Source: Baylisascaris procyonis | Lineage: Eukaryota > Nematoda > Chromadorea > Rhabditida > Ascarididae | DNA: 64,000 bases | Assembly (NCBI GenBank): GCA_037389465.1 | Contig: JAZARR010000250.1 | Span: forward strand, 2,899,001-2,963,000 | Direction of reading: 5' to 3' | Shown: piece after piece, positions 23,545 through 51,282 of the stretch | Numbering within the stretch: position 1 is the first letter of the stretch | Layout of the letters: each line of letters starts with the position of its first letter | Notes under the pieces: model-generated | What the model saw: the letters and a program-made list of their open reading frames with translations, nothing else | Databases searched by the model: none | What the model was told of the DNA's origin: nothing | Translations under genes and position numbers: made by a program

Positions 23545-24945
23545 ATCGATAATGAAAACTATGAGTGATTATTGCCCAAAAATGATTTATTCTAAATAAA
23601 CAAAGAAGAATTTCGGCAAGTAAACGAGAAGTCGCTCAGGTCAAGAAAATTTTTCGCTGATCAGATCCAAAGAGGGATCAGTCTATACCATTTTTCTCAA
23701 TTTTTGCATGCGGATATAGCGATAATTTCAAAATAATGACATCATAAAATAGAACAAGACAAAAATTCAAAGATTTTTCTTTTCATGTAGAAATTGGTAA
23801 GTCGGCGTTGGATTATCGGCTAAACTTAACTTGCATTCTTCGTTATTGAAAAAGAATTGAAAATCATTTACTTCACTTCAGATCGTTGATAGATCATTTA
23901 TAAATATTTGAGTGTAATTATTTCTCATTACCTCACATATATTTTAAATTGTTTCATTTTCAATGAGTCTTCAAACGATTGCTTTTTAAGCATTTGAATC
24001 ATAAAATATTCGATGACATTAAGCTACTCTTTGATGATTCTACTTGTACTTTTTTACGAAAGCTATATTACGACAAAGATCTTCGTTCATTCGTCGGCTC
24101 AGAATAGCTCTTTAATAAGCTTACTTATCCTGTGATTGCCGTTTATTCTTCCTATCCATAACTTCTTTGCAGATAAATTCCCACACAAATTCAGTGATTG
24201 TAGCGTATAGCTACTCAACAATTTTTCTATGTCGTTTTCGCGCCTTCAACGATCGTTTATCGCGGGAAAGCACATTAACCTGGGACGAATTCTATGGATG
24301 AGTATTTGTTGTTGTTAAGCTGTATGTGTTATTCATCGGTTGTGAAGTATGACTGGAACATTCGAAACTTCTTTTTGAGCTTGGAAGGTTTACTTTTGGC
24401 CAAGTTTTATCTTTATTATACACGAACTTGTCATTTGATTATATGCTTCATTTATAGCACATTGAAATATTTTAATAAATGTAGAGAGATAACAGGTTAT
24501 AATAGAAGTGATAACTTCCAATATGCGGAAGTTCTTCTAATAGGTTTGCAAACGCTGATTTTGTTGTTGCGCAGTTTTTACTGTGGAAAATATTGCAATG
24601 GGCGTGAGTAAAATTTGGTAACGATCGCGACTAAAATCAGGACCGCTTGATTCACAACCATGTGGACGATGAACCGAAAGATTTTGCCTACCGGATTCAA
24701 GTAGACTGAAGGTGATCCCGACCAAGACATAATTCATTCCATATTGTAATAAGTCAAATCAACTGCTGCTCGCGATTGCAGTTGAATTCTGATTTAACGT
24801 TCGCCACACGAAAACATTTCGAGTCATGGTCTATAACGATTTTGATCCCAGCTCGATTATGATTGTAGAGCAGTTTGACTATGATCGTAGAACAGTGTGC
24901 ACTATGAAATGCTCTTGTAAATGTCGCTTTGATACTACGATAGGG

Positions 24946-25341: not shown

Positions 25342-28300
25342 ATGAGTGATGACCGCGATTGGCATGCTAAGGTGAGTGCGCACTAATGCCTATGGCTTTT
25401 TTAAACATTAGTGCTGGTTGATACGACTTGAGCCAATGCTTGTTTTTTTGAAGAGATCCGGAATTTGGCTGAAACTTTTTGGATGAAAAAGTTTTGGGAA
25501 TTTTTGGCCCCTCAAGGTATCATTTTTTTTTTTTTAAGTTGCGTTTTATTTGGATATGCCAACGTTCTGATCATTGCTTTTTTTATATTCTCATCGGTTT
25601 TATTGTCACTGCTGTGTCGTCCTCTTCCGCCCGCCTACGCATTATTGATTACCGGTTAAAAACCAGAAGATCAAATTAATCGATAATTTGCCACTTTTAA
25701 ATCCTTTTAGCAACCTTATTTTGAAGTCATGGAGGGCAAATAAGAAAGTAAATGATAAAAGTAAATGGTTGAAATAACACTTAGAATCCTAATGCGCATA
25801 GATTTATTTGTTATAAAACTTTGAATTTTTTAGGTGCGATGCGTCCCACAAGGGGTGCAGCTCATTCCACCGATGCAAAACGGTACATTGCGGTGGAATA
25901 GCAAAACGGAACATCTGGAATGGTGCCCTAAAACTGGCTGCAAAATGGTTTGTAAGAATTTTTGAAAACGTTAAAACAAATTTGTTTTATAATCGAACTT
26001 TTTTTATTAGAAGTGTTGCTATCAAAGACATGTCAAAGTTCATAGATGACATTCTTCAAGATAAAAAAAAAATTGGGAGTAACGGAGAATGCAAAGGTCA
26101 ATGAGCAGGTGATATCAGTTAGACCATATCAGTGAATTTTTAAAGTTTTATTTTTTATTTTTTATTTTTTTATTTTTGAATTTTATAGGGGCTTCTATTT
26201 TCTTTCACATTTCACAGTAAATTTTAAAGTAGAAATTACGTACCAAGGATTACGTACCAATCGCCTACCAAGGATTTTGGAAACACTTGATATGAATCGT
26301 TTCTAGCCGGGATATCGATATGAAGTGCGGCATGAAGATTATTGTTTTTCTATGCCATTATTGGAACTGATTTGTATCTTTATCATTTTTCATAGTCATA
26401 GTAGTATTTCATTAATATTGTTTAGGTTGTATTTTTTAACACCAAAATTGAAGCTTTTCTATCCCTTGCTTTTCCATTTGCTATTAATCTTCTTTCTTTA
26501 TTTTTATACGATTTTATGTTATTTTTCCGACAGTATTTTTTTCAGCTTTCTTTCGCTTACGTTTCTTTCATTGTATTCGTTAATATGTTTTCAAAATCTG
26601 TTTAGTCTTATGGAAAGGATGCGATATTTCTACCAACAAGGGCACCATTTTATACAACACTCTCATTAATTGCGAGAAGCAGTGGATCGTCTTCGAATTC
26701 AATTATGGAGATCACTGTCGATTTCGGTTCAAAGGAAAAGATGAACGATGCGTATAGTTTTCTGAAAAATATTTTACCTGGTAAATACGCTTTCATAAAT
26801 CAATTTATTTCGTGTGAGGTAATCCTTCCAATCTTGATTTCATGATTGCATCAAATTTATTTGCACTCAGGCTAGTTGGCTAAGCTGGTTAGTTATTTAA
26901 TGAAATTTTTATTTAGCGTATATTAGTTTATTTCAAAAAGTGCATTATTTTAAATTAAGAAATGGAATTGTAAGGCGTTTTCAAGTGGAATTTAATATAA
27001 TCGTGGTATATCTACCTTATGCTTTTAGTGCATTGACATAATTTTCGCACAAGAAGTGGTGAGGTGGTTATACGTTTATTAGTGGTACAGCATCCATTAA
27101 ACGCAGCATTTAGCGTTGTAGATTGTGATTGGAACGATTATGAACCACTGAATGGCTGGACTTGTTCGCTGTGCATGAACGACGTTTAGACTTAGGTGAT
27201 TGGAACTAAACTTTTAGTTGAATGAGCCGTGTATTGAGAGTGAGCTCTATACTTCAAGATAGTGTTTGCGATCAAATCTACTTGAAGTGTAATTTGTGTG
27301 AATTATGGAATCTAATGCATCTCCTCTATCTTGCAGTGGCGGCACCTCAAGATGGTCGAATTCCTAAGTCGAGAGGCCTCTATCAAACTTCTCGAACTGC
27401 GAACTGTAGGACTCCAATGATGCCAGTTCAGAAGTACAAACCTCTCCCGAATTTATTTGATTGCTTTGCTTTTTAATTTCTTTATTTGCCTTTTTTGTTT
27501 TGCATTATAGAATGTATTGCAGAATGAGTGCATTCAATATGCATTTTCACTTAAATACCTTATCTTATTCTTGTTTCCAGAAATCTTTGTTGAGAATTCT
27601 ACCGGAAAGCATAAAATTTTAAACCTCTCGGCAGTGAAAGGAAGAGTGGTTAGCATACATATGTAACATAGAGATGTATTTTAAGGGCAGTGACACCGCA
27701 TTCGAAACCTTCTATCACCGACAGCGCTCGTCAATCATTCGACAGGTGTGGATGGAAACGAGGTAAGTTGCATGCAAGATTTTCCTGCTTCAGTGCTATG
27801 AGGTTTTAAATTTCGCTATATTCATCGCATGTGTGAAGTTGAGGGAAGAGAAGAGGAAGCGGGATAACGATATAGCGATTCGCTGATAGATTATTTTCAC
27901 TTCTTTTTATCTCATATATTCTGCATAAAAGTGAAATTTTTCATTTCCAGCGACTAACTGAAGAATATCTTATTCATAAGTAGTTCACCGGAAATGGTCA
28001 CTTGATCTCGATGCTTATCGGCAAGGGTCTGAACTGGGACAGCAATGTGAGATAGATAATCTGAATTAAATGAAAACATGATTCGTCTCATAGTTTGTTT
28101 TCAGTTGATTGGATGCTTTTGTCGTATAGCCGTACCGAATGCTCACTTGTCTCAATTATTGCAATAAAAAGCCATCCTTGAGCTGCATTTATCTGCCTTT
28201 GTTTGAGTGCTAATCCCAATGAAATTTGCTGGAATAGATGCCGCTGGTATGCGCATACAAAAGTGGCATTTACAGTTTCTTTTATTAGGTTTTAATTTGG

Positions 28301-31300
28301 TGTAATGAAAGGTTAAAGTTGTAAATACGTTCACCTATGCAATTTTTTATGATCGACTTTAATGCTCCATAAACTTTGACTACGTTGTGAAGGAGTCATC
28401 AGATTCATAGATTGGATTGTCTCGCTCACGGTAACTGAAAGAGATTTATGCAGAAATAGCATTTTTCTGAGTGTTATAATACTGTGTATTCATTCACCAG
28501 CGTTCAAATCTTCAGTGATATGCCTTGTTCATAAAAGTATATGAGAGGAATGACGTATGAATAGTATACAAATTTTCAGTTGAAAATGCAAGTCCACTAC
28601 TACCGAAGAAATCTCGGGCCGTTGTCGCGACAGAGGGATTTAATAAATCGTCATCGGTTATTGCGGCGGATCACGTCGATAAATCATCGCCATTCCGAAG
28701 TGATGGCAAGGCATCAATGATGTTACGAGATTTCGTATCGGGGTTTTTAGACGAATCTAATTCGAGTTCCAACAAGAGGTACTCTATTTTTCTTGAGAAG
28801 TCTTGATTGCTGATTTTAATAAAACGTGGATTTCAGTTTTATAGCATGACGTGATTGTCACGAAGTATTTGCTTAAGTGGCAGGTGATCAGTACTGGATG
28901 AAAATGTCATGATTTATCGGGGTTAAATTGAAAGATGAACGAAAGTTTTGGCGAGTTATTCAGAGGTTAGAGATAGATTGATCGAGAAATGCTATTTCTG
29001 CACCAAAAAAGAAATACGAGTAGGCTGTCGTTTTATATTTGTCAAAAAAAAGTTTGTTATCTGAAAAAAAACATTTTCTTTATTTTCTGTTCGTTTGTGT
29101 TTCGTTTTTATAGGATTGCTTAAGAGGGTAATAAAATTCGTAAAAGTGCTTCTATTAAATTCGTTACTAAAAAAATATCTTTCGTTCTTATCAAAAGCTG
29201 TTAAAGAAAGTTTCTTTTTTTTCGGTTGGCGAAAGATGTTCTGAGTAGTCTACCGGCAATGGTTTTGACGATCATTTAGGACATTGTGTCATGCTTGGAT
29301 TCCAGGTTATATAAGGCAGACGTTTTATGACTCTATAGGTGTGCAAAATTGTTTTACTTTGATCCATGCAAGTGGAAGGTATGGGTCATGCAGGTGAAAA
29401 ACTCTTTGGTTGAGAGAGTAAAAAGTTGCGTAATGGAAATATAGCATGAATCGAATGTTGAGCACTTAATCTGTGGAGAATGAAACAGGAGTATCGACCA
29501 AAATGACCGTCAGTGAAATCAATCTTTGCAGCCAAGAGCCAGAGGCAGTCGATCGAAATAAATATGGGGTGGAACCCGGAAAAGCGGCAGTTGAAGCGTC
29601 GAAAAACATTTCTAGGAGGCGCATGAAAGCATCATTGGAGCAGGAAACTGCTGTGACCCCGGAAAATAAAGTTTTGAAGCGTCGAGAACATTGGTCGGAT
29701 TCTTTCTATGGAGATCAGCCAAAGATAGAAAGGTTAAATTGACCTCTTTTATTTACACGCTTCAGTTATTGGTTAAGATATGCCCCACCTGAATCTGATG
29801 AGGTCATTGTTTGGATCAAGGAATTTCGATTGGTCTTCCATTTAGGCAATATTTATTCGTTAGGATGGCCTGGAATTTCCTTATGGGTTATCTGGTCGTA
29901 TCCAGATGTATATTAAAACATTACCATCTTTTCTTGTGTTACCGATAAAAATTACTATATGTAATCTAATTTTCAGGTGGAATGGCGCTAGTTTTTTTAA
30001 TGAAGGTACTGGGAAAATGCATTCATCGTTACGAAATTGGTTGATGGGGATGTGGCTCATGCAAAAGATTTTTTGAAGTCTCGGGCCTTCAGTTCCTTAA
30101 TGTTTTCTCCATTTATCACGAATTGAAGTTCTTAGGTTTTTTTTGTCTTCGTTTTTCACTGGAATTTTTTCTGACTTTATTAATGCAAAAAGGTATTTAC
30201 AGACCTCAGCTGAATAGGAAGGTTCAACACGAGCGGGTTCACAAGAGTCGAACATCAATGAGGTCAATCCTTGCAGCGGTGGAACGAGAGGTATTTTTCA
30301 TCTTATAGTTTATTCATAATGGCAGTTGTGAATGAGTTTTTGTGTCAATGTTGCTTGAAATATTTGCTTAGGTAAGGACATTCTAAGGTGGCAATGTCCA
30401 TCATGCAGGATAGAGAACGCAATAAATTTTGTTAGTTTTGTGTGTTAGAAAATACGGCGCATATAAGAGCAGACGTAGAAGAAAGGTTCATAATTGATTC
30501 AGCAGTGTTAAAGGGACAAGGATCTCAGTTTTTGGTCATGTTGGGGAGCTTATTAATTATTTTCATATCAATTTGCTGCCGTTCTGTGGTCGCTACCTTG
30601 ATTTTGCGAACCGTTCTTACTGAGATTGATGCGGATTTCATTAGTGTATGCTGCTCAAGGATCTTTGCAACTTGTATTTCATTTCGGGAAATGGTTGATA
30701 TGCAAAGCGGAGAGAATGCAAGAGGAGGTAGTAATCTTAGAAGGGTGCAATAATCGTCTAATGTTAATATGCACCATTGATCATATCAGAGGCTTATTGC
30801 TCAGGAAAATGATAAAGATGTCGCTCAATCGACTACATCGGCTATTTGCTGCTCTCCACAACCTTCAACAGGTTTTCGACGTCGAATAAGTGACGTCAAT
30901 GAGACGCATTTATGCAGTCTATCGCCGATGAAATCTCCTATTAAAAAATCCTCAAGCGTTGCACCATTCTCTCCGAAAAAAGACGAACATTTCAATCTTA
31001 GCGGGTTGGTTTTTTTTTTTTTTTGAAAGTTTTTCGGCAAATTTTCAGATTTCTCATTATTTTTTTTTTCTATTTGGAAGGTGATGAGAATTTATGAATC
31101 CTACGTTAAACGACGGAATTTTCATAGGAATTTGACATTTGAAAAGAAGAGGGATTCTTTAATTTCTTCCTTCATTCCATATGTTGTTTTTGAGTCAATT
31201 TTTGTTCAGTTTTGTGAATGTGTAACAAATCACGAATGTTAACGTAGGGAATTGATTCACAAAAGCACAAAAACGAACGCTCCTACAACGACAGTTATTG

Positions 31301-34300
31301 ATGTGAACAGAGTAGAAAAATTTCAGATTTGCGAACTTGGGTGCTACGTGTTATATGAATGCGGTGCTTCAAGCAATCTTTAGTGTTGAGACATTTTCGA
31401 AGGAGCTTTTTGCAACATGGGAGAAGTGCAAGGCGAATGATGCAGATAATGGGAGCTCCAAAGAAGGCGTTGAACTGCTAGGGTTTGTTTACGAATAGCT
31501 TGCCTGAAATTCAAGATTTTTTCATTGGATTCATACGATTGCTATAGTAGTTCAAACGATTTTATTGAATGACGGTGATATGTGCATATTTGCTTGCTAT
31601 TTGAATGTAACGATTTTTCAGTAGTTTTTTTTTTTGAGGCCATTTTTATCAAGCCGTCTGGAATGGAAAGAGGTAATTTAAAAGCATGTTGGCAATTCCT
31701 TGCAAGTAATGAAGAGGTGATTATTTAATTTCTGATCGCCCGAATTATTTGAAGTGGGGCTATTGAGAACTTTTTTTTTGCTTCTCATGCAACTTGCTGA
31801 ATGTTTTTTTCATCCTAAAGTACTGTCGCTTTATGGCCTAATAAACCTTCACTCAATCATTAAATGAAATGCAATGAATTAGAAGAAAATTTGATAACGT
31901 AGAGGTTGCCTAATTATTCAAATATGATGCTATAAACATTTGCCATTTTAGTGCTCTATCAACATTGGCAAGTCGCCGTTTATTAGCATCATCAGAGGAA
32001 AATAAACGTTTACTGAGGGGTGTTATGGACGCCATCAGAAATGATACTTTCTCAGAGAATCACCAAGAGGTGACGCTAATAGCACTCTTATTTGTTAACG
32101 TCAATTTCTCATCTTCATATTGATGTGTTCATAATTACCTATTCACTTTCGATGATCGAAACTCTCTTTTTTTGAGTTATACAAATTCAAGAGCCAATCA
32201 TGTTGCGTAGTTCAACTATCTCCTGTTGAAATAAAAAATCATCAATGAGACCGCATAGCTGTATTAAAATTGAGCTATAAAATGAATGCTCAGAAGTAAT
32301 GTGGAGTGGTGGGGAATTGTGGCAAATTTCTTCGGAACACCTGTTCTTGTTCTTGTTCAACATCGAACGATGGAAAAGAAACCATTGTGCAGAAATGTGT
32401 AGAGATGGTATTTTGCAGCGATGCTGAATTCTAATTGTTTGCTTGGTTAGCTGAGTTGAAAGTTTCCATGCTTTTTTAAGTCGTCAGTTTACAAATTGAT
32501 GACCTGCAAACCCAAAATCAGAGGTCGAGGTGAGGGAATTCTCTCATGAACAGTTGTGCAAACGGCTAGGAATGGAAGTGGTTGGAATGATGGGATAGAG
32601 TGCATAGTTGTGTTGTGATAGGAGCAATGTTTTCGGCTTCTTTAGTCACTTTGGAAGGGTGGGGTAGAGGGGAGGGAAGGAAAGGGGAGGGAAAGTAGGG
32701 GGATAGCGGTTAGCTAAAGGAATGTTTTAGATACGGACATCGCACAGTGATATTTTAATTTAGGACGCTCAAGAGTTTATGGTTCATATTTTCGACCAAT
32801 TGTGCGACGAGTGCAGCAACATCCTTCCTAAGAGGTTTGATCTCGAAAAGAACGAAAAGGAAATCGTAAATCCGGTGTTGTCGAATTTCATGTTCACCCT
32901 TAAACACGACATCAAATGTGAATGGTTGGTTGTTGTTGTTCGGAAGCTCATTTCATTCTTTCCATGAGTTATTACAATTATTTTTGCGAGTTTATAGCCT
33001 AGTAATATCATTTTTTCAGTGATTTTATTTAGTGGAATATTTTTACAATCGGCAAAATTGACTTGCCATAACGTAAAACTTTTAGTTACCATTAATGTTT
33101 GTAGTCAAATTGTACTAATGAAATTGTTGTTGGATTTTTAGATATTTTAGCGAGTTATTTGTTCTTTTATTCAGTTTTTCTCTCACTTCGGAAGTATTTC
33201 ATTATGAGCATTTCAGTTGCTTCAAAACATATACGACTTATGAAGAAAGCACCAGTCTACCGATCGATTTCGGTCAATCCGCCTTCGGGTGAGATATTTT
33301 GCTTGCATCTGTTTGAATATCCAATTCAACAGTTGTATCTTTTGAAAGAGAGAGGGAGAGATAAGAGCATAAAGATGGCTAAGAATGAATTCTTGTTTGT
33401 CCATAGATGAAAAAGGCTTGGACTGGTTTTGATGCGTAAGAGGTTTTGCACTTTAGTGCGCAGTTTTGAACATCGGTTGATTTTATCTGATTTAAGATCA
33501 TCGAATCTGAAAAGGAAGACGTTGACATCGATACAGACGATGCTTGATCACTGTTTGCGTAGCGAGAAGGTCGAACATCGCTGCGACGGATGTGGTTCAG
33601 ACAGTGCCCTCATCACCCACAAATTCCAGAAGATGCCTAGGTAAACACTTCATTTGGCAGGAGTTTTGATGAATAGCCGCAGTAGAGCATGATACCAGCA
33701 ACGGGAAATTCTTTCAGCGGTTGATCAGTCTTGAAGAGTATTGCAGAAATGTTATTTTTGGATTTAAGAAAAATTTCGATTAGCAAAAACCGTTTAATAA
33801 TGAGCGGTTGGGCAGCATGTTTTATGGTTTAGTAGTAAGTCTTTGAGATGCAATGCAAGTTTTCCTGAACGCATATAGCATAGGGAAGAAAGTCTACACA
33901 GGCATGCTGGTCCAACCTTACAGAGTTGTATAAGCACAAAGTGCTTGATAGTTGATATTCGGGTATCATGTTTCCGTAGTTTTTCAGATTACGTAATAAT
34001 AGGAATGTAGCAGAAATATATTCAAGAGCCGGTATTAGTGTAGCGAAGAGCCAAAAGCAAGTCTTGATAACACACTAACGTTCGACGCAAAGATGTCGTT
34101 CATCATGCATATATTTTATTACACGTCTTGGAGTTTGTTGAGGCATAGTTGAGACTGTTAATGAAAGTTTTGTTTTCAAGCAAGTTTCAGCGTCTCTTAT
34201 TTCCGTTGTTTTGATGCTTCGCTTCTCAAAAACGTATTATTTCTATTTGCCACTGCAAAAAATGGTAGGAATATGCAAATTTTGAGTTAAAAATAAATGC

Positions 34301-37300
34301 ATTACATAAAATGTTCTGAAGTTGTCGAGTGTGGGATATAGATTTGCCGCTTGTGTGAATTAATGAATTGATTAGAATACCAGCACCAAAAGTTTGGTTT
34401 AGTTCAGGGCGAATTTTATTAGGTTTGGATGCATTGTTAATTTTCTTGGAGGCCTGCTGTTTTTTTTTTTTTTTTACCGAAAGTGTTTCACATGTTCATC
34501 TCACGATAAGGAGCCGCCTGGTTTTGTTTTGTGGCTAAGAGAAAACGAAAAGAAGGGAATTCCCTCTCCAAAGCCAACTATAGAGCTGTGTTCGTTTGTG
34601 GGCTTCTTTGGTTGAGATTGCATGTGGGACTTCGAAGTAGCAATTTTTCTTTCGTACGATACTCACTCGTTGAGTTATCATTTTTCTAAACCTATGTTCT
34701 CTTTTAGAAACTGAATTCTTGCATACGGTTTCATAGCTGGTTCTACCGTGAAGAAGATGCTGATAGTCAGTGCTTTTTATAAAGATGTTGATAACAGTCG
34801 ATGCTTTTTACAGGTGTTTGGTGATGTATTTGAAGCGCTATACATTTGATGCGGATCCGTATTACCAGAAACGGGCCGATCGTGTTGACATCCCTCTATT
34901 CGTTACACTCGATGGTCACTGTGCCGAACACGTTGAAACGTTTACTCGAGTATCATCCGCTATCAAGTAGGATTTGTTTCTTTTTTGATTCAAAACTATT
35001 TGTCGCAAGGAAGAGACGCAAGTGGAGCCGGTTGCTTTCGAATGGAAAATATTTCAGGAATCTGGATCTCTGGTCGATAAATCCGTCACACTCTAAGCAG
35101 CGTTCTCCCGAAGGGGAGCTGCAGTGCGCAGAAAGACTTGCGACGACTACACCTGGCGTATCTCGCAATCCCGAATGTAGCAGCAGCGGATTAGGACAGT
35201 CAGCGAGTGATGACGGTTCCGACTCATCTTTGCACTACCACCGTCGCAAGTCAAACGCACTTCCTAGAAGGCTGTGGTCAGCCGATCGTGATTCAACACG
35301 TTCCCCATGTGCGAAAGGTGTGGTATTTTGCATCGTTTAAATATCAGCTCTTCGTTTTTTGGTTTCTAGCCTTCTCTCTTATTCTGTTTCCCATAGCTCA
35401 ATACTGCAGTATTTCAAAAGGAATTAAAATTAATGTTTTGTAACCACAAACGTTCAAGCGTTTTCTCGGCAGCTAGTTGTAAATTATTCACCACCAACTT
35501 TGATTTCAGCCAACTTCCAAAAAATTATATTTTTGTGTGCATATACAGATTTAGAGAAGCCGCACGTAAGCGGAGATGAAGCAGAGATTCTGCAAACGTC
35601 GTCTTCACCTTTGAAACGACCAGGTGGCCACCCATTTACTGTCAGCAAGCTTTCCAGATCGCTCAGAAGTGATAACAGTCAGTGTTTTTCCTAATATTTT
35701 CGCACTTATAAGTTGACGAATTTCACCTTCTGGTAGAATGTTTCGCAGTGCCGTTGAACAGAAAGTTAACTCTCCCGTAACATGCGCTATTCAAATAGAT
35801 TGCAGTTTCTGTGGAATTAGGTTTGTTAGCTCAACTTTTTTTGGAAAATTAGGTATGTTAACTCGGCTTTTTTCTAAGAAAAATAGGGAATGGGGAAGGG
35901 GGGGGGAAGGGTCGCAATGGCAATAGCAGATAACATCATCTTGTCTCAAGAATTGAGCAGGAATATATGTTTTAATGAATTTGACTGTAGTTACGTTTTT
36001 CTCTGTGTTTAGTCTAATAATAAAGTATTCTGCATATCTCAGAAAGTGTTCTCTTTTGCACTTTTCGAAGAGAGGCTTTAATATTTTATAAATTTATGCC
36101 GTATTTATTGCCGCAATTATCTTCAGGTATAGGAGCGCCGTCAACTTTATGATTATATTTTAATTCGTCAGAGTATTTTTACTGTACTGTTTTTGAGTTC
36201 AAGTCAATAAGTCGGTCACGACTTTTGAAGTTATGCCGAGGTATTATGATAATTGTTTTTGATCAGTTAATTTTTCAGCTTGCAATGCCGGTCCAGATTT
36301 GGCATCTGAAGCATCCATTTTAAACAATGAGGAGCAAATGGCGAATGATGATATATTTTCCTCTCCAGCGGAAAAGAAGGGACGTATTGATGTATGTTTA
36401 TATTTTCTCATATTATCTTTTATTATATTATCGTTACTGTCGGAATTTCGGAGATTTTTTATGTTTTTATTACTTGATATATTCATTTGTTCGATTACGG
36501 AAGCGCTGGGTAATTTATCTCGCGCGCAGCTCTTCGTCTTCTACAGAACGATCGATATTCATCTTCTTCATAAGTGGTGAGATGGTCGATAGAAATTCCC
36601 TATGTAATATATTAAAAGTAGTAAATATTTTTAGAGTTTAGTAACGAGTGTAACCTAGCGGTGAAGAAATTTAGGGGAGGGGGATGCGATTATCTCTTCA
36701 TTTGTTTTATGCTCGACTGTGTGTTGCTTTTATCTCATCAACAGCTCATTTAGCAAATGCATTTGCAGAACTCAGTGAATGTCGTTTCGGATTTGCTTAA
36801 TAAGTCGAGTGACGTCACCGATGCTGATACGAGATACGTGAGGTAAACATTTATCGATCGGTTTATTTTTTTTATGCGGAACAGAAAAGATAACAAATGT
36901 GATTGGCATGCTGCGTATTATCTTATTTATGTTATCTTCTTGTGATCATTTTTTTTTTCGTCGTTTGAATCATTTGAGTGAAATTTTGAGTGAGAAGGAG
37001 GTAAAGAATAAAAAGGAGACGAGATTCTTGGGCGGAAGAATGCAAAAAGAGATATTATCAATAATCTAAGATTGAACGTAAGTGGAACTGCAATGACAGA
37101 ACTTCAATATTCGTTTTCATGCTTTCATTACCGCTTATTGATCTCAGTTTTTTTTTACTTTATTTCCCATTTTTTATCACTCATAAATGTATTTGTGCAT
37201 TTTAATAAATGGGAACGTAAAACGCTGCATCATAGGTAGAATTCCTTTCAATAATGCTTTTGTCCGCAAAATAACAGTAGTTTTGATTTAGCGCGGTGAA

Positions 37301-40300
37301 TGGAATCTCGAGTGTTGCAGTTCTTGATCAAAGTAGAATTGCTCGTAGTGCATTCTCACGGCGTAATGGTTAAGCTAAATGTTGCGATACATTTCGAGTG
37401 AATATCTCAATCTTTGACAAAAAAGTGGATTAATTTTTGTTTATTTTTCTTCATGAAGACAGAATGAGGCAATACCACTTTAATAAACTTCCTCTGACAG
37501 TTATTTCTCCACGAAAATGGATCATTGTGCAGATGAATTATTGAAACTTGATTGGTCGTCCCAAAAATCACAATGATGATAATTTTCAACCCCTCAGCTT
37601 TGATTTATTTAATTCTTTGTCGGCCACATGCATCCGAAACAGAAATTTAACCTTGTAAGCTGAGATTAAGTTGATAGTTTGGGGGAGTTCGGGAGGAGGG
37701 GTGAAGAGAGAAAGGATAGGACTGTTAGAAGTTTGTAATCACCATCTTTAACCAACCAGGTTCTCGTGACGTGGCTGTTGCTGACGGTAATATATGATTA
37801 TAATACTGATGTTACTGAAAAACGTCTTTTGCTGGTATCTTTGGATAAATTAAGCGTTCCGATTTTCAGTCCGTCCATCTCTCCTACTCCTTCAACTTCG
37901 ATAAGACGAGGACCTTTTACGACCGACGAATTAGCGCAGATGTCGGAAAGTGAGCAAGTGAAAGTGGTTGGTACTCATTAATTTAGTAATTTCTTAATAA
38001 TTAAATTAATAGAATATTGTTTTTTCTTCCTGTGATCGAGATTCCTCGTTTCCTATAATTTGCTACTGCGTTGTTCATAGATTGCAGAAATTTTGAGTTA
38101 TTGAGAGTTTGTTATTGACGGTTCTTAGAAAGATTTACGAAAAAACGTATAATGGTAGCAAAGGCATTTTGAAGTTGATTCTTTCGAAGCTGCTAGTCTC
38201 ATCGTCAACTCATTTGTGTTATTTTACAGAATGTTCTTCATTTGCCTACTGCAAAATCTTTTGCAAGGAGTTCAAAATGCGATCCTAGCAGATCTGCGTG
38301 GATTGGGTTGTGAATTATGGTCAGTAACGGTCTCGGTCAGGCTGCTTCTTCCTTTACCTTAGTAATAATGCTGCTCGTAGCGCACATGGTCAGGAATGTC
38401 ACTTTCATTACTTAAGCTTGTAGTTTGTTGAGAAAGTAGGTTTGGGGCGTTTATTGGTGTTAAAAAATTTCGTTTTCTGAATAATTGTTCATCATTTAGG
38501 CAATCGAATGGAGTGTATACGGAGAAGGAGCACCGATACGAGAATCTGAGAGCATGATCAGAGAAGAGGTTTGCTGTTTGATGTGTTCTAGTTAGCTGTA
38601 TCTTCGAGTGCACATTGAGGTTTATCCCATCGGCCAAGATGTGTTATTCGAAGAGATATTTGCTGACTCAGATGATCTATTATTCGTGTGCAACAATCAC
38701 TGCACCAATATCCTTTGACATATGACAGTTCCAGAGAATTACTAAGAGCTATAAGCAATACTGCCTTGTTTTTATTTGCGCCTAATATAAAAAAAGTTTA
38801 AGGTTTCATCAGTACCATCCATCCATGCACGGATGCAGCTGGTGAAAGAGTGTTGGAGGGGAGGGGGGGAGGGTTATTTTTACATGAGAGAATTTTTTTC
38901 TGCACTCTTTCGTTTCCTTATTTCTTGCACTTTTTCGATTATCCTTACGTTGGCCGTCATGGTCTATTGTGCGTTTCATGCGCCGTCCATGCGTGCAGCA
39001 TTTCACATAGGCAAGTAGTTATTAAGGAATTTGAGGGAGGAATAACTGTAGTTCAGGAGAACATATTGTTAATGTGCTGTTGTTTGAGGCGGTTGTCGCT
39101 GATTCCTCAAGAACACAAATCCGTGGAAGCAGTCAAAGCAGTGATTTGGAATCTGAAGTAAAGAGGGAAGGCGAGCTTGAAGAAAGTAAGTTTATTGTAA
39201 TACCCGTTTACATCAAGTCTAGCTTCGATGAGGTGGTTTTGGCGATGAATTTATAGTGAAGCAAAACATGACGGATCTTTCGAACAAAGTTCAGCAGGCG
39301 GTACGCCGACATTTAAGAGCACTTCGAAAAAAAGAATAAGGATTGATGCGAGATGATTAGGTAGCAAATACTGAAAAAAGTTTTTGAACTGCATATCTGT
39401 GCATAAAAGGTGCTGCGGTGCTATGATGGTGAATTCAAACTTTCGTCATTCAGCTACCGAGTTGCGCAGATGCTTGTATTTCGTAGCAAATTTCTTGTGT
39501 AGATTTTATTTTATGCCTATTCTTATGTTAGTTCAATTTTTGTATTTGGTTTGGCTACCTATGAGGATATTTTAGAAAATATTCTATATTGTTCCTGCTC
39601 AGGTTTATCTTCAGTCCTGTCGAAGAAATTAGATTTAGGGGATGAACGTGCCGACATTGCAGCAGAAGAGAGATTTGAAGAGAATAAAAAATCGGAGGCG
39701 TCACTAACCAAGCGAGATGTGGAAGAGACGCTTTCAGTGTCTCAAGGGACTGCTAGCATTGTCGAAACATCGTTTTTCCCGGTAAAATTTTCCTAAGAAT
39801 TTTGGGTATTGGAGGAATGCTTAGAAGTTTTGATAGCTGTATTTTGAAAGAGAGGCGATAAAGTAGAGTTGAGAGCACATATTAAATGACAAGAACTGTT
39901 GCTTAGAGGAGAATTTCTCCTTATTTTCTACTTAACCATCATATGATGCTGATGCATTGTGTACATAGATAGTTTAATGGGGTTGGAGAGTGAAAGGCGG
40001 CTGTAGTTTTGTAGCTTAATTCCTCTTAATTTATATCCTTGTTTTATAATTCCTTCCAGCAAAGGCACCACGTTTGTAATTTTTCTCTGCAATTTGTCGA
40101 TAATCTAGTAACAGGTCGGCCAATTAGCCAAAAGATATTGGCAAAACATATGCTATCCAGGGCCGATCATTGAGCTATTCCGAATTGTGTTCGCTCGAGA
40201 ATGTATAGGATTCGTAAAATTCCTTTTGAGCTCGTAAGTTTTATTTTCTACGCTCAGTTTTTTATTTTTTAGGCTAAAGTTGAAAATGGTGGCACCTTTA

Positions 40301-43300
40301 CTATACGTTATAATCCGATCACGCAGCAGTGGAGAGCGAAAGCGTGCTGTTTTCTTGGATTGGATTTAGCAGAGCAAGCGTTACGGTATTCTTTATGACA
40401 TTAATCCTCTTTAGAGCATCCGTATTTTCATTCTTATGTTTCTTTCTTTTTTATGGATTCTTTTTCAAAATTTCATTTGGTTTGGCTACATTCTATTCGC
40501 TAAAGAAGATTGGATTTCTTTAATTTCCTAAAATTGTTGCGCATAATTGTTTTCGGTTTATGCTAGATGTTATTGAAGATGATGTGCCACGAAGTATTTC
40601 TAATCTATTGCTTTCCGAAAATCTGCTTTATTTGGTTAATTCTTAGCTGCTGAGTGTTTTCGATTACTTGTTATCTCCAAGTAAATTGTATCAGTTAATT
40701 GAAGGTGACCTTGATGATTCTTGGCTAAATAGAGCTTTATTCTCCATGTCTAGTGTTCTGTTATTCACTATTAAAAACGATAGTTTAGTGCTGTTTCATT
40801 AGAAAAAAGAGTAATGAATATTTGTTGTTTGTTTTTAGAAGGGAGGATTGTGTTGCAGAGATGAAAATGAGCCAGGTGAAATGGAGATGAGTGTATACGA
40901 TTATCCTAAACGTGTGGCATCGGTTGCGGGTGATGGCAATTGTTTATTCCGGGCTCTTGCTTACGCTATCACTGGTGGCTCCGATAAAGGACATGCTCTG
41001 CTTAGAGAAAAGGTTCCTCTTTATTTGCTTTTATGGTGATATCGGTTGAAGGGCTCAATTTTTCAAGTGTCGGTGAGGTATGACATCTCTCCTGACAAGC
41101 TAGTTCTAGTTACTTTTACCTATGTAGATGTTTTTGGGGGATAAATCGCAATCGGATCTATCCATGAATAGAATAGGGACAATATATTTGGTGAAACATC
41201 ATTGTAGATTTCAAAGTAATCTGATTCGTTCTGTCCACTTGAGTGCTTCTAGAGGATGCAAGTATCACTACGATAATGATTTCAGGTGGTATCGTTCGAA
41301 ATGGCGTACGAAGATCGATTTCGGGAATTGAAAGGACTTGACGATGAGAGTTGGCGTGAATATGTGAACGATCTTTTGAACGACCGTACTTGGGGTTCAG
41401 GCGTTGAGATTTCTGCTTGTGCATCGATGCTGAATATCGATATCTGGACATTCCTGGATGGTCAATGGTTGTGTTATAGGCCTCGCTTTAGGCGCTCAAA
41501 AGATGGAGTTTTAGAAGGTTTCTTTCAGCAGTGCATTTGCCCAACCATCAAACTTTTTTGCATATACAGCGCATCCTGCTTTTATATTTTTATGATCGAA
41601 GGGAAACTGGTAGCAGCCCGAGAGGTTGACGTGTCGGTGCATTGAATAAAGGTGTCAATAACCGGAATGATTTGGGTATCATTTTTGAAGCACGAGTGAG
41701 TATTCTCAATGCTACAACTTAAGTTCATAAGTTTATCAGGCTATTTAATTTAACCTGTCACGTGATGGCTGAGTGAAATCTTTCGGTTATTAATCACTCA
41801 CTGAATAAAATTTGTGTACTATCGGTAAAGTGGACGTTGATGTTTGAGGTGTTGGCGGAAGTGAATTGCTGCATCGGGAATGATTGTAAAGCTGCATTGC
41901 GCTGAGCGTAATCCTCCCTCCCACTAGTTGTCGACTTTCATCTAATTGAAGAGGCGTTCATTGTTGATGCGAATATGATTGTTTGCAGATTTACCACAAC
42001 GTGATTACAAATTCGGCAAGAGGAAGGGTATTTACCTATTAAACGAACACTGCCACTTCAGTCCTGTGATCGAACCATCTGTAAATGCTTAATATTTATT
42101 TATTTCGTGTGGAATTATTGTTGATAGAAACGTTATGAGAGCGATTTGGGTACATGTTTCATGGGATAAACGAGAACATAGACTATTTTATCAGGACTGT
42201 GAAAGGACCGGGAGCGTATGGTTGTGTCACATTAAATGACGTGTGCAGGAAGATTCAAGGTGGCATATGGGATGCTGCTTCATTCTTATTGTTTCAGCAT
42301 CTTCACAAAAGAATTCCAACATTTTCTACTGAAAATTTTTGTCGATTATCACCGCATTCAAGTGGGAATATCTCTTGAATTATGATATTTCCATAACTTA
42401 AGGGCATTTCCATTCTTGATCGCAATTTCCTTTCCGTCTATGAATAAATTGATTGAAATAAGGCATTTTTTGCAACATTTTTACTTGTAATGTTGTTTTT
42501 ATTCAAATATTTTATAGAATGTGCAGCTTCTTGCCCAACAAGCATACGATGAACGAATCCGTGCAATTGTCGCCAATGCTGAGGTATGTTACCAAAGTGA
42601 ATCCAATTTTGTTTATGAGACGGTCATTATTGCGGACATATATAAATGCTTAATTAGTTCTCATGCATCATGGGACGAAAGTAGATCTAAACAGTGCAAT
42701 TCAAACAGATATGCTTTGAGAAGTTGTTTTAATTACATCCCTTCCTTCGTTTTGAACCTCGTGTCACCTTCTTGAAACATTTATCTTTTATGAAATATGA
42801 CTGAAATGTCTTTTAAATGTATTTTTTTCACTGGATTAATGACTAATGAGTTAATTAGCAAATTTTTCTTTTTTCTGAGGTTGAGCCTGAAAGGCAGGTT
42901 AAAGTGTTTAATGTTGCCTAATTGATTCGATTATTTCTTAACTTCAGGTCGGCGATATGGAGCCATCGTATCGGCTTGTTTCAATTGTTAGTCATCGTGG
43001 CTTGAAAAGCAATTCAGGTTAGTAACGCAAAGTTTTTTTTTTTTATGAATTTCAACTGGATATTGAATGTGATACCCATTCTTCGATAAAAAATATTCTC
43101 TTCTGTAGGTAATAAGTGAATTTTAAAAATTCATTTATTTGGTTGATCGTCAAGTGGATTTTATCTATTTATGCCTCAGTACCTCCCTGAAACCAGTTTT
43201 GTGCTCCTTAATTCCATGTCTCAGCCATTCCCCTATATGCTTCATGGCAAAGGGGAATAGGCGCTGGATTTCGTCCGAAGTGTTTTTTAACCTCAAAGCT

Positions 43301-43803
43301 TATGCTGTAATTTCTTGCTAGTGACTTAACACTGTGGTGAACTAAATGCGTGCTGTTTCTAGGGCATTATGTATGTGACGTATGGAATCGGAAGGAACGT
43401 CGTTGGTTACATTGTAACGATAATAGCATCTCTGCGGTATCTGAAGAGGCAGTTCGTACTGGTAGAACGGAATGTGGCTATTTGTTCTTTTATATGGCCA
43501 AGTAAGTCCACAATGTTTCTCTCACCTAGTTATTGATGGGCTGTTATGTGAGACAGTTTTGCAAATGGAATTTTTATGCAATGTTTGTGAATAGTCACCA
43601 GAATGCTTATATTGAGAGAATTCTTTCTTTTATTTGTGGCACGAAATTTGGAATATGCAATAGGCGATTATTTTTTGCGTATATAATCACATTGTTTTTG
43701 AAGCAACTTTAATAGATATAATAAATTCAGGAATATTTCATTGTTATAGTTGAATTGTTTTAGATCACTTCTGGAAGAAAATGATTCAAGTGGAAATGAG
43801 TGA
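25342..43803 (+). CDS. USP37-type ubiquitin-specific protease with an inserted OTU protease domain
   Basis: Predicted deubiquitinase of roughly 1,350 residues. Exons supported by frame and phase: 25342-25371, 25834-25947, 26606-26780, 27337-27433, 27686-27762, 28580-28778, 29514-29732, 29766-29802, about 30203-30290, 30805-31004, 31327-31482, 31952-32069, 32764-32924, 33217-33288, 33497-33640, 34814-34966, 35058-35317, 35549-35677, 36279-36391, 36769-36842, 37870-37966, about 38230-38306, possibly 38500-38570, about 39059-39185, 39603-39781, 40273-40385, 40859-41012, 41286-41517, 41989-42080, 42128-42149, 42249-42259, 42518-42583, 42948-43017, 43363-43501 and 43764-43803. Order: USP37-like N-terminal PH domain, serine-rich linker, USP cysteine lobe, long acidic/serine-rich insert, OTU domain, USP histidine lobe. 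The junctions around 29802-30203 and 37966-39059 do not close cleanly in phase, so one or two exons there are wrong or missing. From 39603 to the stop every junction closes. Start codon MSDDRDWHAK lies 11 bases after an AG. Confidence 0.8.
25834..26780 (+). other. USP37-type N-terminal PH-like domain (two exons)
   Basis: Exons 25834-25947 and 26606-26780. The segment PPMQNGTLRWNSKTEHLEW corresponds to the start of the USP37 PH domain (human reads MQTGITKWKEGSFEI). The second exon ends with a helix-like SKEKMNDAYSFLKNI, matching the C-terminal helix of that domain. This places the protein in the USP37/26/29 group and not merely among USPs in general. Recognition is by eye. Confidence 0.55.
31327..34966 (+). 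other. USP domain, N-terminal (cysteine) lobe
   Basis: Six exons. The Cys box is FANLGATCYMNAVLQAIFS, with the nucleophile in TCYMN. DAQEFMVHIFDQL follows, the QDAHEF box of USPs. Then come LPIDFGQSAFG, the zinc-finger-like pairs HRCDGCGSDSALITHKF with an earlier IKCE-CC, and the conserved LVMYLKRYTFDADPYYQKR strand-helix before the large insert. All five internal junctions close in phase. Confidence 0.92.
35058..39781 (+). other. Low-complexity insert between the USP lobes
   Basis: Exons here encode serine-, acid- and lysine-rich sequence (for example SSSGLGQSASDDGSDSS and SPSISPTPSTSIRRGPF), without a recognised fold. USP37 proteins carry an insert with ubiquitin-interacting motifs at this place. 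Here only loose candidates are seen, such as LTKRDVEETLSVSQG, and none is a clear ubiquitin-interacting motif. Confidence 0.6.
40859..42080 (+). other. OTU cysteine protease domain inside the USP reading frame
   Basis: Three exons, 40859-41012, 41286-41517 and 41989-42080. The catalytic Asp-Gly-Asn-Cys is in VASVAGDGNCLFRALAYAI. The middle block has DRTWGSGVEISACASMLNID, the tWG..vEi motif of OTU enzymes. The histidine motif is in GIYLLNEHCHFSPVIEP. The preceding exon 40273-40385 (NGGTFTIRYNPITQQWRAK) joins in phase. The domain looks complete: Cys, the WG.EI segment and His are all present. It has no own start codon context, promoter or terminator that I can see. It resembles the OTU domains common in nematode mobile elements as much as cellular OTUs, but I cannot place it in a subfamily. 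Confidence 0.85.
42249..42259 (+). other. Eleven-base micro-exon in the USP-OTU gene
   Basis: GTGTGCAG|GAAGATTCAAG|GTGGCA. It is needed to convert the phase-1 donor after YESDLG (42149) into the phase-0 acceptor at 42518. Without it the frame stops immediately. It adds only RFK plus part of one codon. The ubiquitous AG/GT ends make chance possible. Confidence 0.5.
42518..43501 (+). other. USP domain, C-terminal (histidine) lobe
   Basis: Exons 42518-42583, 42948-43017 and 43363-43501. EPSYRLVSIVSHRGLKSNSG continues as GHYVCDVWNRKERRWLHCND and ends GYLFFYMAK. The catalytic His is in SGGHYVCDV and the third catalytic residue in the CND of LHCNDNS. Sequence and order match the USP37 C-terminal half. 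The exon ends at a perfect donor (AA|gtaagt), leading to a final exon SLLEENDSSGNE. Confidence 0.92.
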
Positions 43804-46800: not shown

Positions 46801-49075
46801 GTTTCATTATCATTCATAATTAGTAGCTTCATGTCCACCGAAGGATTTGTGCATTAGAGGTATTTCATTCTTCTATTGCGCTTACTTTGAACCAAATTTG
46901 CAGCGTGAATTTTGCAATGAGCTTACCACATTCTGGAATTATCGATTGATTAGTAAAAAAATCAATTGATATTTATGAAGAACTGTTTTGCGAACTATGG
47001 GAAAGAATGAGAGGGGTGGGGGGGGGGGCGTTTCAAAGAAACTAGGATTATGCATCAGATCAGCCGATTGCATTAATGCTCTAAAATTGTTAGAACAATA
47101 TTTATTTATCAACGAATTTCTCGAGTAGGTTACTATGTAGTAACAAGTTTCGATCCTCAACTAACATATCGCTTATCTTCGATTTGATGTTTAATTTAAA
47201 AAAAAAGAACAAAAAACATTTGAGATAATATTCTTAACGAAATGATTTTGTCGCATTAAAATGTCTTCTTGTCTATCGCCTTATACGAAAAATGGAATTG
47301 GCTATTTTTTCCCCTAAATTTGCATATGATGAAATATTGAAGAGTTCGATTTAAATCACGTCATTTTCTTGCACTGTTGTCATATTATTTGTTTGTTTGT
47401 TCAAATCTGCTCTTTTTTTCAATATTTCGTCGTTAAATTTTAATATCCTAAATGAACAATCGTATAGACTTTCATTATCAGTTGCAAATATTTATAATGA
47501 TTAATGTCACTTCCGATTTTTAGTGTCATCTAATACTGCAATATTTTTTACCTGCCAAGCTTTATTTCGTATATTGGTGAGTTTATTCAGCTAATCTCAA
47601 CTTCTAATACACGTGCAATTGTGTTTTCATGACGGCGTCATCAGATATTGCTTATTAAATCAACAGGAAATTGTAATATTTTATGAGTGTTGAAATACAA
47701 GTTAGGAGTGAAATACTAGGGAATTTCAATAAGAAGAGGAGGGAAACGGGAATATGAAACGCGCACAAAAAAAAAAGCAAAAGATGGGAACGATCTCGTT
47801 GCTGATCGAGAAAGGTCGAATGAAGTCAAGTGGACACCACCAGACAAATGCTAGCAGTATCAGTGATATGATCAAACCATAAATATGCTCATTTTATTGC
47901 CACTATATGTTAATGTGTTAATTTAATTTCAAATTTAATTTTATGTTGATTTCAACTCGATCAGTAGTCCTCAATTCGATTCGTTGAATATTTCTTTACG
48001 TATGAGCAAAAGAAGATCGCATCTCAGAATGCCTAAATCATTGATGAACAAATATTCTCTCATTTCATTTTTTTTACAGCATATCAGCAAAAGTGAATTC
48101 GGTTGCATTTTTTATCGTTAATGATTAGCAATTTTTGTTATAAACGAATATTTTTGCCTATTATTCTCTTTTCTTTTAATTCTTATTTTTCTATTATTTT
48201 TCACTTTTTTTTCTCTCTATTTCTCAGCTAATTCATTACTACTTAGTTGTCAAGTTTTGAAAACATTTATTTACACGTTTCTTTTTTCGTTCTTTTTGTT
48301 TCGCACTTTTCAATCAATGTTTATTTTTTGTTGTGCAATATTTTTTTTTACTACAGCTCTATCGATTATTCATTGCAAAAAGTGTTTAAAATTTTCAAAT
48401 TATGCATTATTGGTTCATTTTTTTTTCGTATAAAATTTCCATATACTCCAATCCATCGAATTAATTATTCATAGTCTCTATACATTGATTAGTGTTTCAT
48501 GAGACATTTTATCTTGCTCAGTACGTAAGGCTCACAGATAGCGGATGTTTATATAAATATACCATCTGACTTAAGTTTATTCGTGTTTAAGTATGGGTAT
48601 ATGTGCCTATTAGAATAATATTTCAAAATAACAGTTATTGTGGACAAAGGTTATCAATTCAGTGAGCATAACATTTTCACTAATGATTTCCTGACCATCT
48701 TTTATATTGATTAATTAGTTTTGAAAAGAGTTATAAACAATTTGAGAGTGTCAAATATTCGCATTCGTTTTATTTTAATCAGTTTTCATTTCGCATCACT
48801 TTTGAAGAGGATATGAATATTTTATTTGTCTATAGAAGATATAGATGCTTGAATCATTTGAAATATGTCTACATTATTGTCGACATTTTATTATTTGTTG
48901 GCATTTTATGCAATTATGAGATTAAATGTATATAATGGTAGTTCCTCGGAGGCATTTCTTCCTGCTTATTTTGGCGTTAAATGCTCCAGGATTGCATGTA
49001 TATTTTGGTAGAAATCCGATCATCTATTTTAAGCGGTTTATTTTAGGCGAAAGAGCGAATTGAGACGAATTCAGT
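43804..49075. other. Gene-poor region between the USP-OTU and receptor genes
   Basis: About 5.3 kb. A less AT-rich patch at 45227-45409 has a minus-strand open frame behind a fair acceptor but no partner exon. Short G runs occur near 46370 and 47018. The rest is AT-rich with homopolymer runs. Nothing I can call a gene. Confidence 0.4.
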
Positions 49076-49093
49076 GTGGGTGACATCGAATCG
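49075..49093 (+). promoter_or_regulatory. Possible spliced-leader acceptor upstream of the receptor gene
   Basis: GAATTCAG ends at 49074 and the first ATG follows at 49094. The frame is open back to a GTG in this leader, but no ATG precedes 49094 in frame. Confidence 0.35.
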
Positions 49094-51282
49094 ATGGAAT
49101 CGTTCGGTGATCTACTTCCCACCAATAGCAGTATCAACTTATTACCACTACTATCGTATGTAATTGAGGGACCACCACTCATAGTGTTCAACTTGTTCTT
49201 GCTTTGGTTTCTTGTGCTAAGCAATGAGACACGTGGTCAATGTCCCTATCAAGTTCTTGCTGGATGTGCAGCCTTCGATGTGGTGTTCTGTTCAGCTTAT
49301 CTCACAACTGGTATCTATCGTCTTCAATTGCTGAACTCTTACGATCGTACGTTTCAATTATGCTTGCTATATGCTACCTCTCACTGGAAAAATGAACTTA
49401 CATAGAGAGAGGGTGATATCGAGCAATAAAGGAATTAAATGGAAAAAGACAATACAATAAAGATAATTTTTATCTTTTAATTGCTCATAAACAACTAATA
49501 GATATATTTAATGCTGTTCGGTGTATTTGATCATCGACTTTTTCCAATCGGGATCGTTGCAGTCGACAAATTCCTCTCCATGCAATCCCAATCGACAATC
49601 CTCTTTTCACGCTCTACTAGCTTTGTATCCTTTGAAGAAATTATATTTGTAATCACTGCTGACTTTTCAAGCTTATATAGTGTATCTTTAAAAATTTGTT
49701 TTTTTAAGTGAGTACAATTATTCGCTTAGAATTCTTCTTCAGCGGCTTCAAATATAAAAAAATGAGCCTTTCTGAGAGTCCATAAAATTGAACTAAGTTG
49801 ACAAAAATTGTTGCAAAAGTTTTGTTTAAAAAAAAAAAAACGTTTCATCGCTATTTCGATTGGAATTTATTGTATTTTTATCGCATTTTTCTCAGATAAG
49901 TGGATCTCCTTTGATTTGGTGTGAATTTTATGAAATATAAATGTGCAAAAAATTGGAATATTATTCTCTCATCAAATAGCATCCAGAAACATAGCCACAA
50001 TCACCATTGAATTTATCGTTGAAAATTTTTTTTCGTAGGCGATTATGTAATTTCACCTTTATTTTATTTAATGTGTATTCTTTAAAAATACAATGCACAA
50101 ATTTCGACGTTCAATTGATACTGATAATTGTAGTGATCTACTTTCATAAGTAGCCGAATAACCTGCTATATTGATTATCTTTTGATTAACTGATTAACCT
50201 CTTGTGTATGATCCATTCTATATCTTTTAGATGATTTAGAATCGATAATCTACTAATCAACCTAGTTAGAATTAATTTATGAACGAATCATCGATTATTT
50301 AAAATGGAGATATTCATCGGGCTCAATGGAATTTTCAATGAATATTTTTAAAGTTCAATAAAAAATCTCTTCGAAATTTTATTAATTTATCAATTTCAGC
50401 AAGTATTCATGTTTCACGTTTATATTGCCTAAGTAAAGTTCACAATTTGTTGCATCTATTCATAACGCCTGAATCAGGGATTATTTGTTTCGTGACGGCA
50501 ATTGATAGATTCTTCTCTTTATATATGCCGCTGAGGTATCGTAAAATATTAGCATCTTATACATTTTTAAGAGTGTATAATTTATACCTGCTGATTGCTT
50601 TTAATGCTTAAGCTATTTTATTTTGTTCAGAGAGAAGCAAGACGAACTATTCAACTGGTGGAGAGCATAAAATGAGCAACAAATTTATCTTTAAAGATCT
50701 GTACAGTTATTATAACATTTGGCACATATGTTCCTTTCAGTTAGGCATATTACTGAATGTGGCACGCTAATTCTATCTTCTAAAAAAATAATTCCTGTTT
50801 AGATTCTCCATACTTTAAATATTTTTTTCAAATAGTATTTTTCAGTGTTCTTCACTTGAAGCGGCACATGCCAATACACACTGTAGATTAGATTATTTGA
50901 TCAGATGAAGAATAGCAGCATTATGAATAGCACAATATGCGCTTTTCACGCCACTATGTTGCACCAATCGCTTGCGGTAATATTCAAAAAATAATGAATA
51001 ATATATTAGTGAAGCGATTGGCCCGTTAAGTTATCAGCTGAACAACCTTCTACTTATAGCACCTGTGCAAAATTATGTGCGATTAAATTTCAGGGTGTGC
51101 ATAACTCATTGAAGTAATGATAATCAACCAAATCAAAACTCATTTGGGAGTCTATCACAAAGTGTAGAATGCATTCATTCAGTTTCATTGTGCATGTATT
51201 CCATTCCCATTAATTGATTGAAATTATCTGAGAGGGATAAATTTTTCCAGTAGAAATGGCATTACTGCTATTTATTTTTGCG

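What the first reader, a model, noticed from the sequence alone, without database searches (positions are those of the whole stretch)
31327..43501. One gene appears to encode two unrelated deubiquitinase folds: an OTU domain nested between the two halves of a USP domain
Seen: a USP Cys lobe (31327-34966), then a complete-looking OTU core (DGNC, WG.EI, NEHCHF; 40859-42080), then the USP His lobe (42948-43501), all on the plus strand. Intron phases close at every junction from 39603 through the OTU exons to the final exon. The OTU has no separate start, and the USP histidine exons have no other partner. Known: USPs tolerate large insertions between the lobes, and USP37 relatives carry ubiquitin-interacting motifs there. 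Inference: the insertion site has received a second catalytic module, so the protein could cut two chain types or have one site guide the other. I know of no described USP-OTU hybrid, but I could not search.
Basis: partly seen in the sequence, partly recalled or inferred. Interest (0 to 1): 0.9.

Follow-up and report, generated by a model that had tools for sequence, protein, structure and literature searches.

The report
Two deubiquitinases nested in one protein
A nematode gene, predicted to have 31 exons, encodes a USP-type deubiquitinase with a second, unrelated deubiquitinase fold (OTU) set into its middle; a number of other nematode proteins in the databases share this layout, and both sites are predicted to cut ubiquitin, which no test has yet shown.

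The parts
25342..31004 (+). exons 1-9: start codon at 25342, PH-like N-terminal domain (residues 1-105) and linker 1
   Evidence: tblastn of P0014, splice choice, full model; the N-terminus of relative P0021 is modelled as six strands plus a helix
31327..34966 (+). exons 10-15: USP Cys lobe (GFANLGATCYMN, QEDAQEF, zinc-finger cysteines, LKRY); catalytic Cys402 at 31349-31351
   Evidence: PF00443 positions 2-189, E 4.7e-31; model
35058..39781 (+). exons 16-23: linker 2 with a UIM-like motif SESEQVKVAIEWSVYG split between exons 20 and 21 (37870-37966, 38500-38568); exon 23 starts at 39603 or, as relatives suggest, 39639
   Evidence: motif by pattern in 7 of 23 proteins; Pfam UIM not reported in the relatives scanned
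40273..40385 (+). exon 24: segment before the OTU core (AKVENGGTFTIRYNPITQQWRAKACCFLGL); enters in phase 0
40859..42080 (+). exons 25-27: OTU domain, D1064/C1067 at 40932-40943, H1190 at 42054-42056; leaves in phase 0
   Evidence: PF02338 E 4.9e-9; profile of eight such OTUs matches OTUD1 4bop, E 5.5e-13
42518..42583 (+). exon 28: short link, helical in the model of a relative, from the OTU to the USP His lobe
42948..43501 (+). exons 29-30: USP His lobe (SYRLVSIVSH, SGHYVCDVW, WLHCND); H1245 at 43365-43367, N1262 at 43416-43418
   Evidence: PF00443 positions 197-254, E 2.4e-14
43764..43803 (+). exon 31: C-terminal tail SLLEENDSSGNE and stop codon TGA at 43801-43803
   Evidence: matches the P0014 tail SLLEESDTSGSE

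Best explanation
This locus encodes a USP26/29/37-type deubiquitinase, likely the counterpart of C. elegans DUO-1, with an OTU domain between its Cys and His lobes, and it would likely work as a two-site enzyme in which the tethered OTU trims ubiquitin chains that the USP site then removes from the substrate. Shown from the sequence and calls: the nested order, both catalytic pairs, strong conservation of the OTU, the same layout in other nematodes, and a relative's contig too short to be unspliced. Predicted: the two USP halves close into one USP fold around the insert, with the OTU held close on one side by a helical link of roughly 20 residues and loosely on the other by a long disordered linker that carries a UIM-like helix. 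Inferred: the UIM-like helix holds a chain, the OTU (closest in sequence to OTUD1, OTUD5 and OTUD3 among solved structures) shortens it, and the USP site cleaves the rest. Also inferred, by kinship: a nuclear germline role in keeping meiotic chromosome proteins from degradation, as is proposed for DUO-1.
Against: No RNA from this species was available, and no activity is shown for either site. The residue two after the OTU histidine is S here and S, T, I, Q, K or R in the relatives, never the Asn or Asp that I recall as usual there, so the OTU must rely on the Asp of DGNC or could be weak. Pfam finds neither UCH_N nor UIM in the seven relatives scanned; the UIM-like pattern is in 7 of 23 proteins only. 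The OTU cassette is phase 0 at both ends, so skipping it would keep the frame and OTU-free isoforms are possible. OTU placement relative to the USP in the model is not reliable (pTM 0.52). The published DUO-1 paper's main text does not contain the word OTU. I could not obtain the DUO-1 sequence, so orthology is inferred. In the USP tree the Angiostrongylus protein falls outside the other nematode USP-OTU rows, on a long branch.
Confidence: 0.6

Rival explanations
1. The OTU is a pseudo-enzyme or binding module: it holds ubiquitin or a partner for the USP site and no longer cuts.
For: The position two after the His is not Asn/Asp in any of the 22 proteins in which the His was found, window included; a non-catalytic insert that regulates a USP is known, the coiled-coil insert of USP25 (PMC6255862, passages).
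Against: Cys of DGNC conserved in 23 of 23 and His in 22 of 23; Asp, Gly, Asn, Cys, the Trp of WG/WA and the His are invariant among eight such OTUs. A mere binding module need not keep them.
Confidence: 0.25
2. Two overlapping genes: the OTU exons form their own message inside a long USP intron.
For: In-frame ATGs at the start of exon 25; an AATAAA at 42443 between OTU and His-lobe exons.
Against: Single contigs of relatives encode USP-OTU-USP in one frame; 22 AATAAA lie in 25342-46000, so one more means little; phases close through the OTU exons; the layout recurs in annotated nematode proteins.
Confidence: 0.03
3. Alternative splicing makes both a USP-OTU-USP form and a plain USP form; the OTU cassette is a regulated option.
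For: The cassette 40273-42080 enters and leaves in phase 0, so skipping would keep the frame and leave both USP lobes.
Against: No OTU-free long nematode isoform was seen among the hits; the one nematode entry there without an OTU match, Cercopithifilaria P0048, is 355 residues long. These searches were limited to candidates sharing words with the query.
Confidence: 0.12

Closest known systems
C. elegans DUO-1 (PMC13012089, PNAS 2026)
   Same: Nematode protein placed with USP26/USP29, as this one is by its nearest named OTU-free hits; class name recalled as 'Deubiquitylating with USP/UBP and OTU domains' (memory, no call).
Mammalian USP26, USP29, USP37
   Same: USP domain with a long linker between Cys and His lobes; best named OTU-free hits P0036 (USP29) and P0038 (USP26). 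For USP37 I read only that it has tandem UIMs proposed to raise its activity (passages in PMC5361193).
   Different: No OTU match in P0036 or P0038; USP26 P0038 has the Pfam UCH_N domain, not detected in the seven nematode-type proteins scanned.
OTUD1, OTUD5, OTUD3
   Same: Closest solved OTU domains by profile: E 5.5e-13, 5.6e-10, 1.1e-9.
   Different: The matches cover about profile positions 23 to 114 of 170, without the His segment; OTUDs are, as far as I recall, not set inside a USP domain.
USP25/USP28
   Same: A folded insert splits the USP catalytic domain and, in USP25, regulates it (PMC6255862, passages).
   Different: The insert is a coiled coil, not an enzyme.
22 database proteins with both UCH and OTU (Parascaris, Anisakis, Toxocara, Syphacia, filariae, Angiostrongylus and four unnamed)
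   Same: Same domain pair; in the seven scanned here the OTU lies inside the UCH match.
   Different: The names shown are USP-domain, OTU-domain, ubiquitinyl hydrolase, ubiquitin carboxyl-terminal hydrolase, unnamed, uncharacterized or hypothetical protein, none pointing to the pair; Wuchereria has two types, about 1066 and about 860 residues.

Membership tests
USP (ubiquitin-specific protease) | UCH profile with catalytic Cys, His and Asn/Asp | tested here: met
   PF00443 2-189 and 197-254; Cys402, H1245, N1262
USP (ubiquitin-specific protease) | USP fold formed by both halves together | tested here: met
USP26/29/37 subfamily | Closest relatives outside nematodes are USP26/29/37 | tested here: met
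   Best named OTU-free hits USP29 and USP26 (capped candidates); in a USP tree of 17 USP-OTU rows and 12 of the 26 OTU-free hits, 16 nematode-type rows group (92/90) beside USP26/29, Angiostrongylus elsewhere on a long branch; one clade for all 17 is not rejected, p-AU 0.26
USP26/29/37 subfamily | N-terminal UCH_N (PH-type) domain | tested here: inconclusive
   No PF16674 hit in the seven USP-OTU proteins scanned, while USP26 P0038 has it; the model shows six strands and a helix at moderate confidence
USP26/29/37 subfamily | UIMs between the lobes | tested here: inconclusive
   UIM-like pattern in window, P0014-P0017, P0020, P0021, 7 of 23; no Pfam UIM hit in the seven scanned
OTU | OTU profile, DGNC cysteine, later His | tested here: met
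   PF02338 above cut-off; Cys in 23 of 23, His in 22 of 23
OTU | Asn/Asp two residues after the catalytic His | tested here: not met
   S in window; S, T, I, Q, K, R in relatives. Recalled as usual but not universal, so it is no bar to membership; the Asp of DGNC is present
OTUD1-type OTU | OTUD1 as nearest kin, K63 preference (recalled) | tested here: inconclusive
   OTUD1 best among PDB sequences only; chain choice not testable here
C. elegans DUO-1 orthologs | Reciprocal best match with DUO-1 | not tested

The most novel reading that the evidence does not exclude
Nematodes, before the split between the Ascaris and Angiostrongylus lines, built a single enzyme with two unrelated deubiquitinase active sites, an OTU nested inside a USP, both working; the OTU edits the chain and the USP frees the substrate, and the meiotic phenotype of DUO-1 depends on both.
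Probability: 0.4. Interest if true: 0.72.

Novelty: new member of a known kind. Interest (0 to 1): 0.48.

Why it matters
If both sites work, one polypeptide unites two unrelated deubiquitinase folds, so chain editing and substrate release could be coupled in space. It also gives a concrete, testable idea for DUO-1: in the parts of its paper that I saw, its meiotic function is discussed as that of a USP relative, without an OTU. A conserved nematode layout absent from the mammalian relatives found here is also worth knowing.

Tried and rejected
Separate OTU gene inside an intron: rejected on relatives' single contigs. Exon at 42195-42259 (open frame TVKGPGAYG...): rejected, wrong phase after 42080 and not matched by P0014. 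Exon at 38230-38319 and acceptor 39052: rejected, phases do not close; 38500-38568 then 39089-39185 fit and match P0014. Exon 23 start: 39603 was used, but 39639 scores better against P0014 (451 against 437) and P0015 (413 against 396); exon 17 start 35549 or 35555 is undecided. First AlphaFold job with 9 sequences gave mean pLDDT 46.3 and was not used for folds. The fold lists of the second model show only USPs in the 50 rows printed, so they say nothing about the OTU or the N-terminal domain. NCBIfam gave nothing useful. Rfam: no match in the window. Pfam OTU search of the own genome gave 0 matches, but rang in 0 of 14 control genomes, so uninformative. P0014 against the own genome: 28 of 30 matches in this locus, two weak matches elsewhere (E 0.07 and 0.23), so no second copy seen. 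Whether the short (about 850-residue) type exists in this genome did not complete. OTU tree of 16 USP-OTU rows and 13 OTU-only hits: forks weak; one clade for the 16 not rejected, p-AU 0.469. Literature: searches found 0 papers; one search listed 2, one search listed 18 and one search listed 20 of 21, none of them opened and no title or abstract start pointing to a USP-OTU hybrid; the DUO-1 paper was the only listed one with duo-1.

Full report
WHAT WAS CHECKED. The finding says that one plus-strand gene carries a USP deubiquitinase split by a nested OTU deubiquitinase. The window lies in a 272.8 Mb assembly of 293 contigs without a name. The nearest named protein is P0015 of Parascaris univalens (93% over the C-terminal 281 residues; family Ascarididae), so the source is an ascaridid nematode (inference).

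THE GENE. Joining the exons by hand gave 22 exons from 30784 to 43505 with all phases closed. A search with its C-terminal part brought P0014, a 1288-residue protein 95% identical there. Mapping P0014 back with tblastn and choosing splice sites gave the full model: 31 exons, 25342-43803, all 30 introns placed at GT-AG sites, 3909 coding bases, one frame of 1302 residues, stop at 43801-43803. Two junctions first chosen from a UIM-like sequence and phase alone (37966 to 38500, 38568 to 39089) were later matched by P0014. A third was not: both relatives lack the first 12 residues of exon 23, and the in-frame acceptor 39639 scores better than 39603, which would give 1290 residues. Exon 17 may start at 35549 or 35555. 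Neither touches a domain.

ONE TRANSCRIPT. P0014 sits on a contig of 4227 bases, P0016 on 4010, P0021 on contigs of at most 3651, P0022 on 2684. The window's gene spans about 18.5 kb with its introns, so P0014's contig is almost certainly assembled from RNA (inference; I take the source tag 'lgn' to mean Logan assemblies of public reads, from memory). It runs in one frame from the start through USP Cys lobe, OTU and USP His lobe. It is not RNA from this very species.

DOMAINS. Pfam on the spliced pieces: UCH PF00443 positions 2-189 (E 4.7e-31) and 197-254 (E 2.4e-14), with OTU PF02338 (E 4.9e-9) between. In six of the seven USP-OTU relatives scanned, one UCH match runs from profile position 1 or 2 to 254 across the OTU; P0017 lacks the beginning. 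Catalytic residues here: USP Cys402, H1245, N1262; OTU D1064, C1067, H1190. Across 23 proteins (window plus 22) the OTU Cys is in 23, the OTU His in 22 (missing in the Toxocara model P0018), the USP His in 20 (missing in P0029, P0030, P0033, whose ends lack that segment), and the USP Cys in 19 (missing in the truncated or short P0017, P0031, P0032, P0034). The residue two after the OTU His is never Asn or Asp, a point against full OTU activity.

CONSTRAINT. Against P0014 the OTU is 142 of 146 identical, the USP His lobe 67 of 69, the USP Cys lobe 232 of 254, the linkers 235 of 288 and 272 of 340 aligned; against P0015 the OTU is 139 of 146, the His lobe 65 of 69 and linker 2 is 218 of 324 aligned. 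The OTU is thus not drifting. Only protein identity was measured, no dN/dS.

KIN. 22 proteins carry both domains: all 9 hits and 15 of 41, two shared; one search scored only the 7992 candidates sharing most words. Eighteen have names, all nematodes: Parascaris, Anisakis, Toxocara, Syphacia, filariae and Angiostrongylus (two looked up, the rest from general knowledge). In Wuchereria there are two types, about 1066 and about 860 residues (P0020 against P0026, P0027, P0033). Of the 26 OTU-free hits the best are USP29, an unnamed ena protein and USP26. The USP tree (17 USP-OTU rows, 12 of the 26 OTU-free hits) puts 16 rows of the nematode type together (92/90) beside USP26/29 (98/98); Angiostrongylus falls elsewhere on a branch of 2.5 changes, but one clade for all 17 is not rejected (p-AU 0.26). 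In the OTU tree one clade is likewise not rejected (p-AU 0.469) but the forks are weak. One insertion before the two lines split is the simplest reading, not proven. The OTU is closest to OTUD1, OTUD5 and OTUD3 among solved structures. P0014 finds only this locus in the own genome, 28 of 30 matches, the other two weak.

WHAT IS KNOWN. C. elegans DUO-1 is described as an ortholog of USP26 and USP29, nuclear in the germ line, needed to assemble and maintain meiotic axes and synaptonemal complexes, with PARG-1 as a partner (PMC13012089; abstract, sections 5 and 11, and passages). Its main text does not hold the word OTU. I recall, from no call, that the class name duo stands for 'Deubiquitylating with USP/UBP and OTU domains'. 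So curators noticed the pair; searches showed no paper whose listing points to it, in a library that lacks most subscription journals and all preprints.

MECHANISM. The best-supported reading is a two-site enzyme of the USP26/29/37 kind. The linker's UIM-like helix (SESEQVKVAIEWSVYG; P0016 SEEEQLNLALEQSRNE; pattern in 7 of 23) would hold a chain, the OTU would shorten it, the USP would release the substrate. UIMs are proposed to raise the activity of USP37 and OTUD1 (passage in PMC5361193). Every step after 'two intact-looking sites' is inferred. The chief rival is an OTU kept for binding or regulation. The cassette 40273-42080 is phase 0 at both ends, so an OTU-free isoform is possible.

VERDICT.

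Noticed in passing
window 2774-3244, minus strand: An exon with an RRM match (PF00076, E 6.8e-6 for the whole frame); by eye it resembles the exon-junction protein Y14/RBM8A (recalled, not tested).
   Followed up: partly
window 49064-49402 and 53434-53811, plus strand: Hydrophobic frames that look like exons of seven-transmembrane receptors; Pfam gives no match at E 0.1.
   Followed up: partly
window 53899-54459: A long pyrimidine-rich tract that leaves open frames rich in S, L, P and F; probably not coding.
   Followed up: no
window 23475-23559 and 14536-14610: Short tandem repeats of 35 and 25 bases.
   Followed up: no
P0020 against P0026, P0027, P0033 (Wuchereria bancrofti): Two types of USP-OTU protein, about 1066 and about 860 residues; the UIM-like pattern is absent from the short type, and in the related P0022 the OTU nearly abuts the USP His lobe.
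   Followed up: partly
P0018 (Toxocara canis): The database model lacks the OTU His segment and part of the USP zinc finger; probably a gene-model fault rather than a real loss (inference).
   Followed up: no
window 25342-26780: The N-terminal domain is modelled in a relative as a PH-like fold but is not matched by the Pfam model for the USP37 N-terminus in the relatives scanned.
   Followed up: partly
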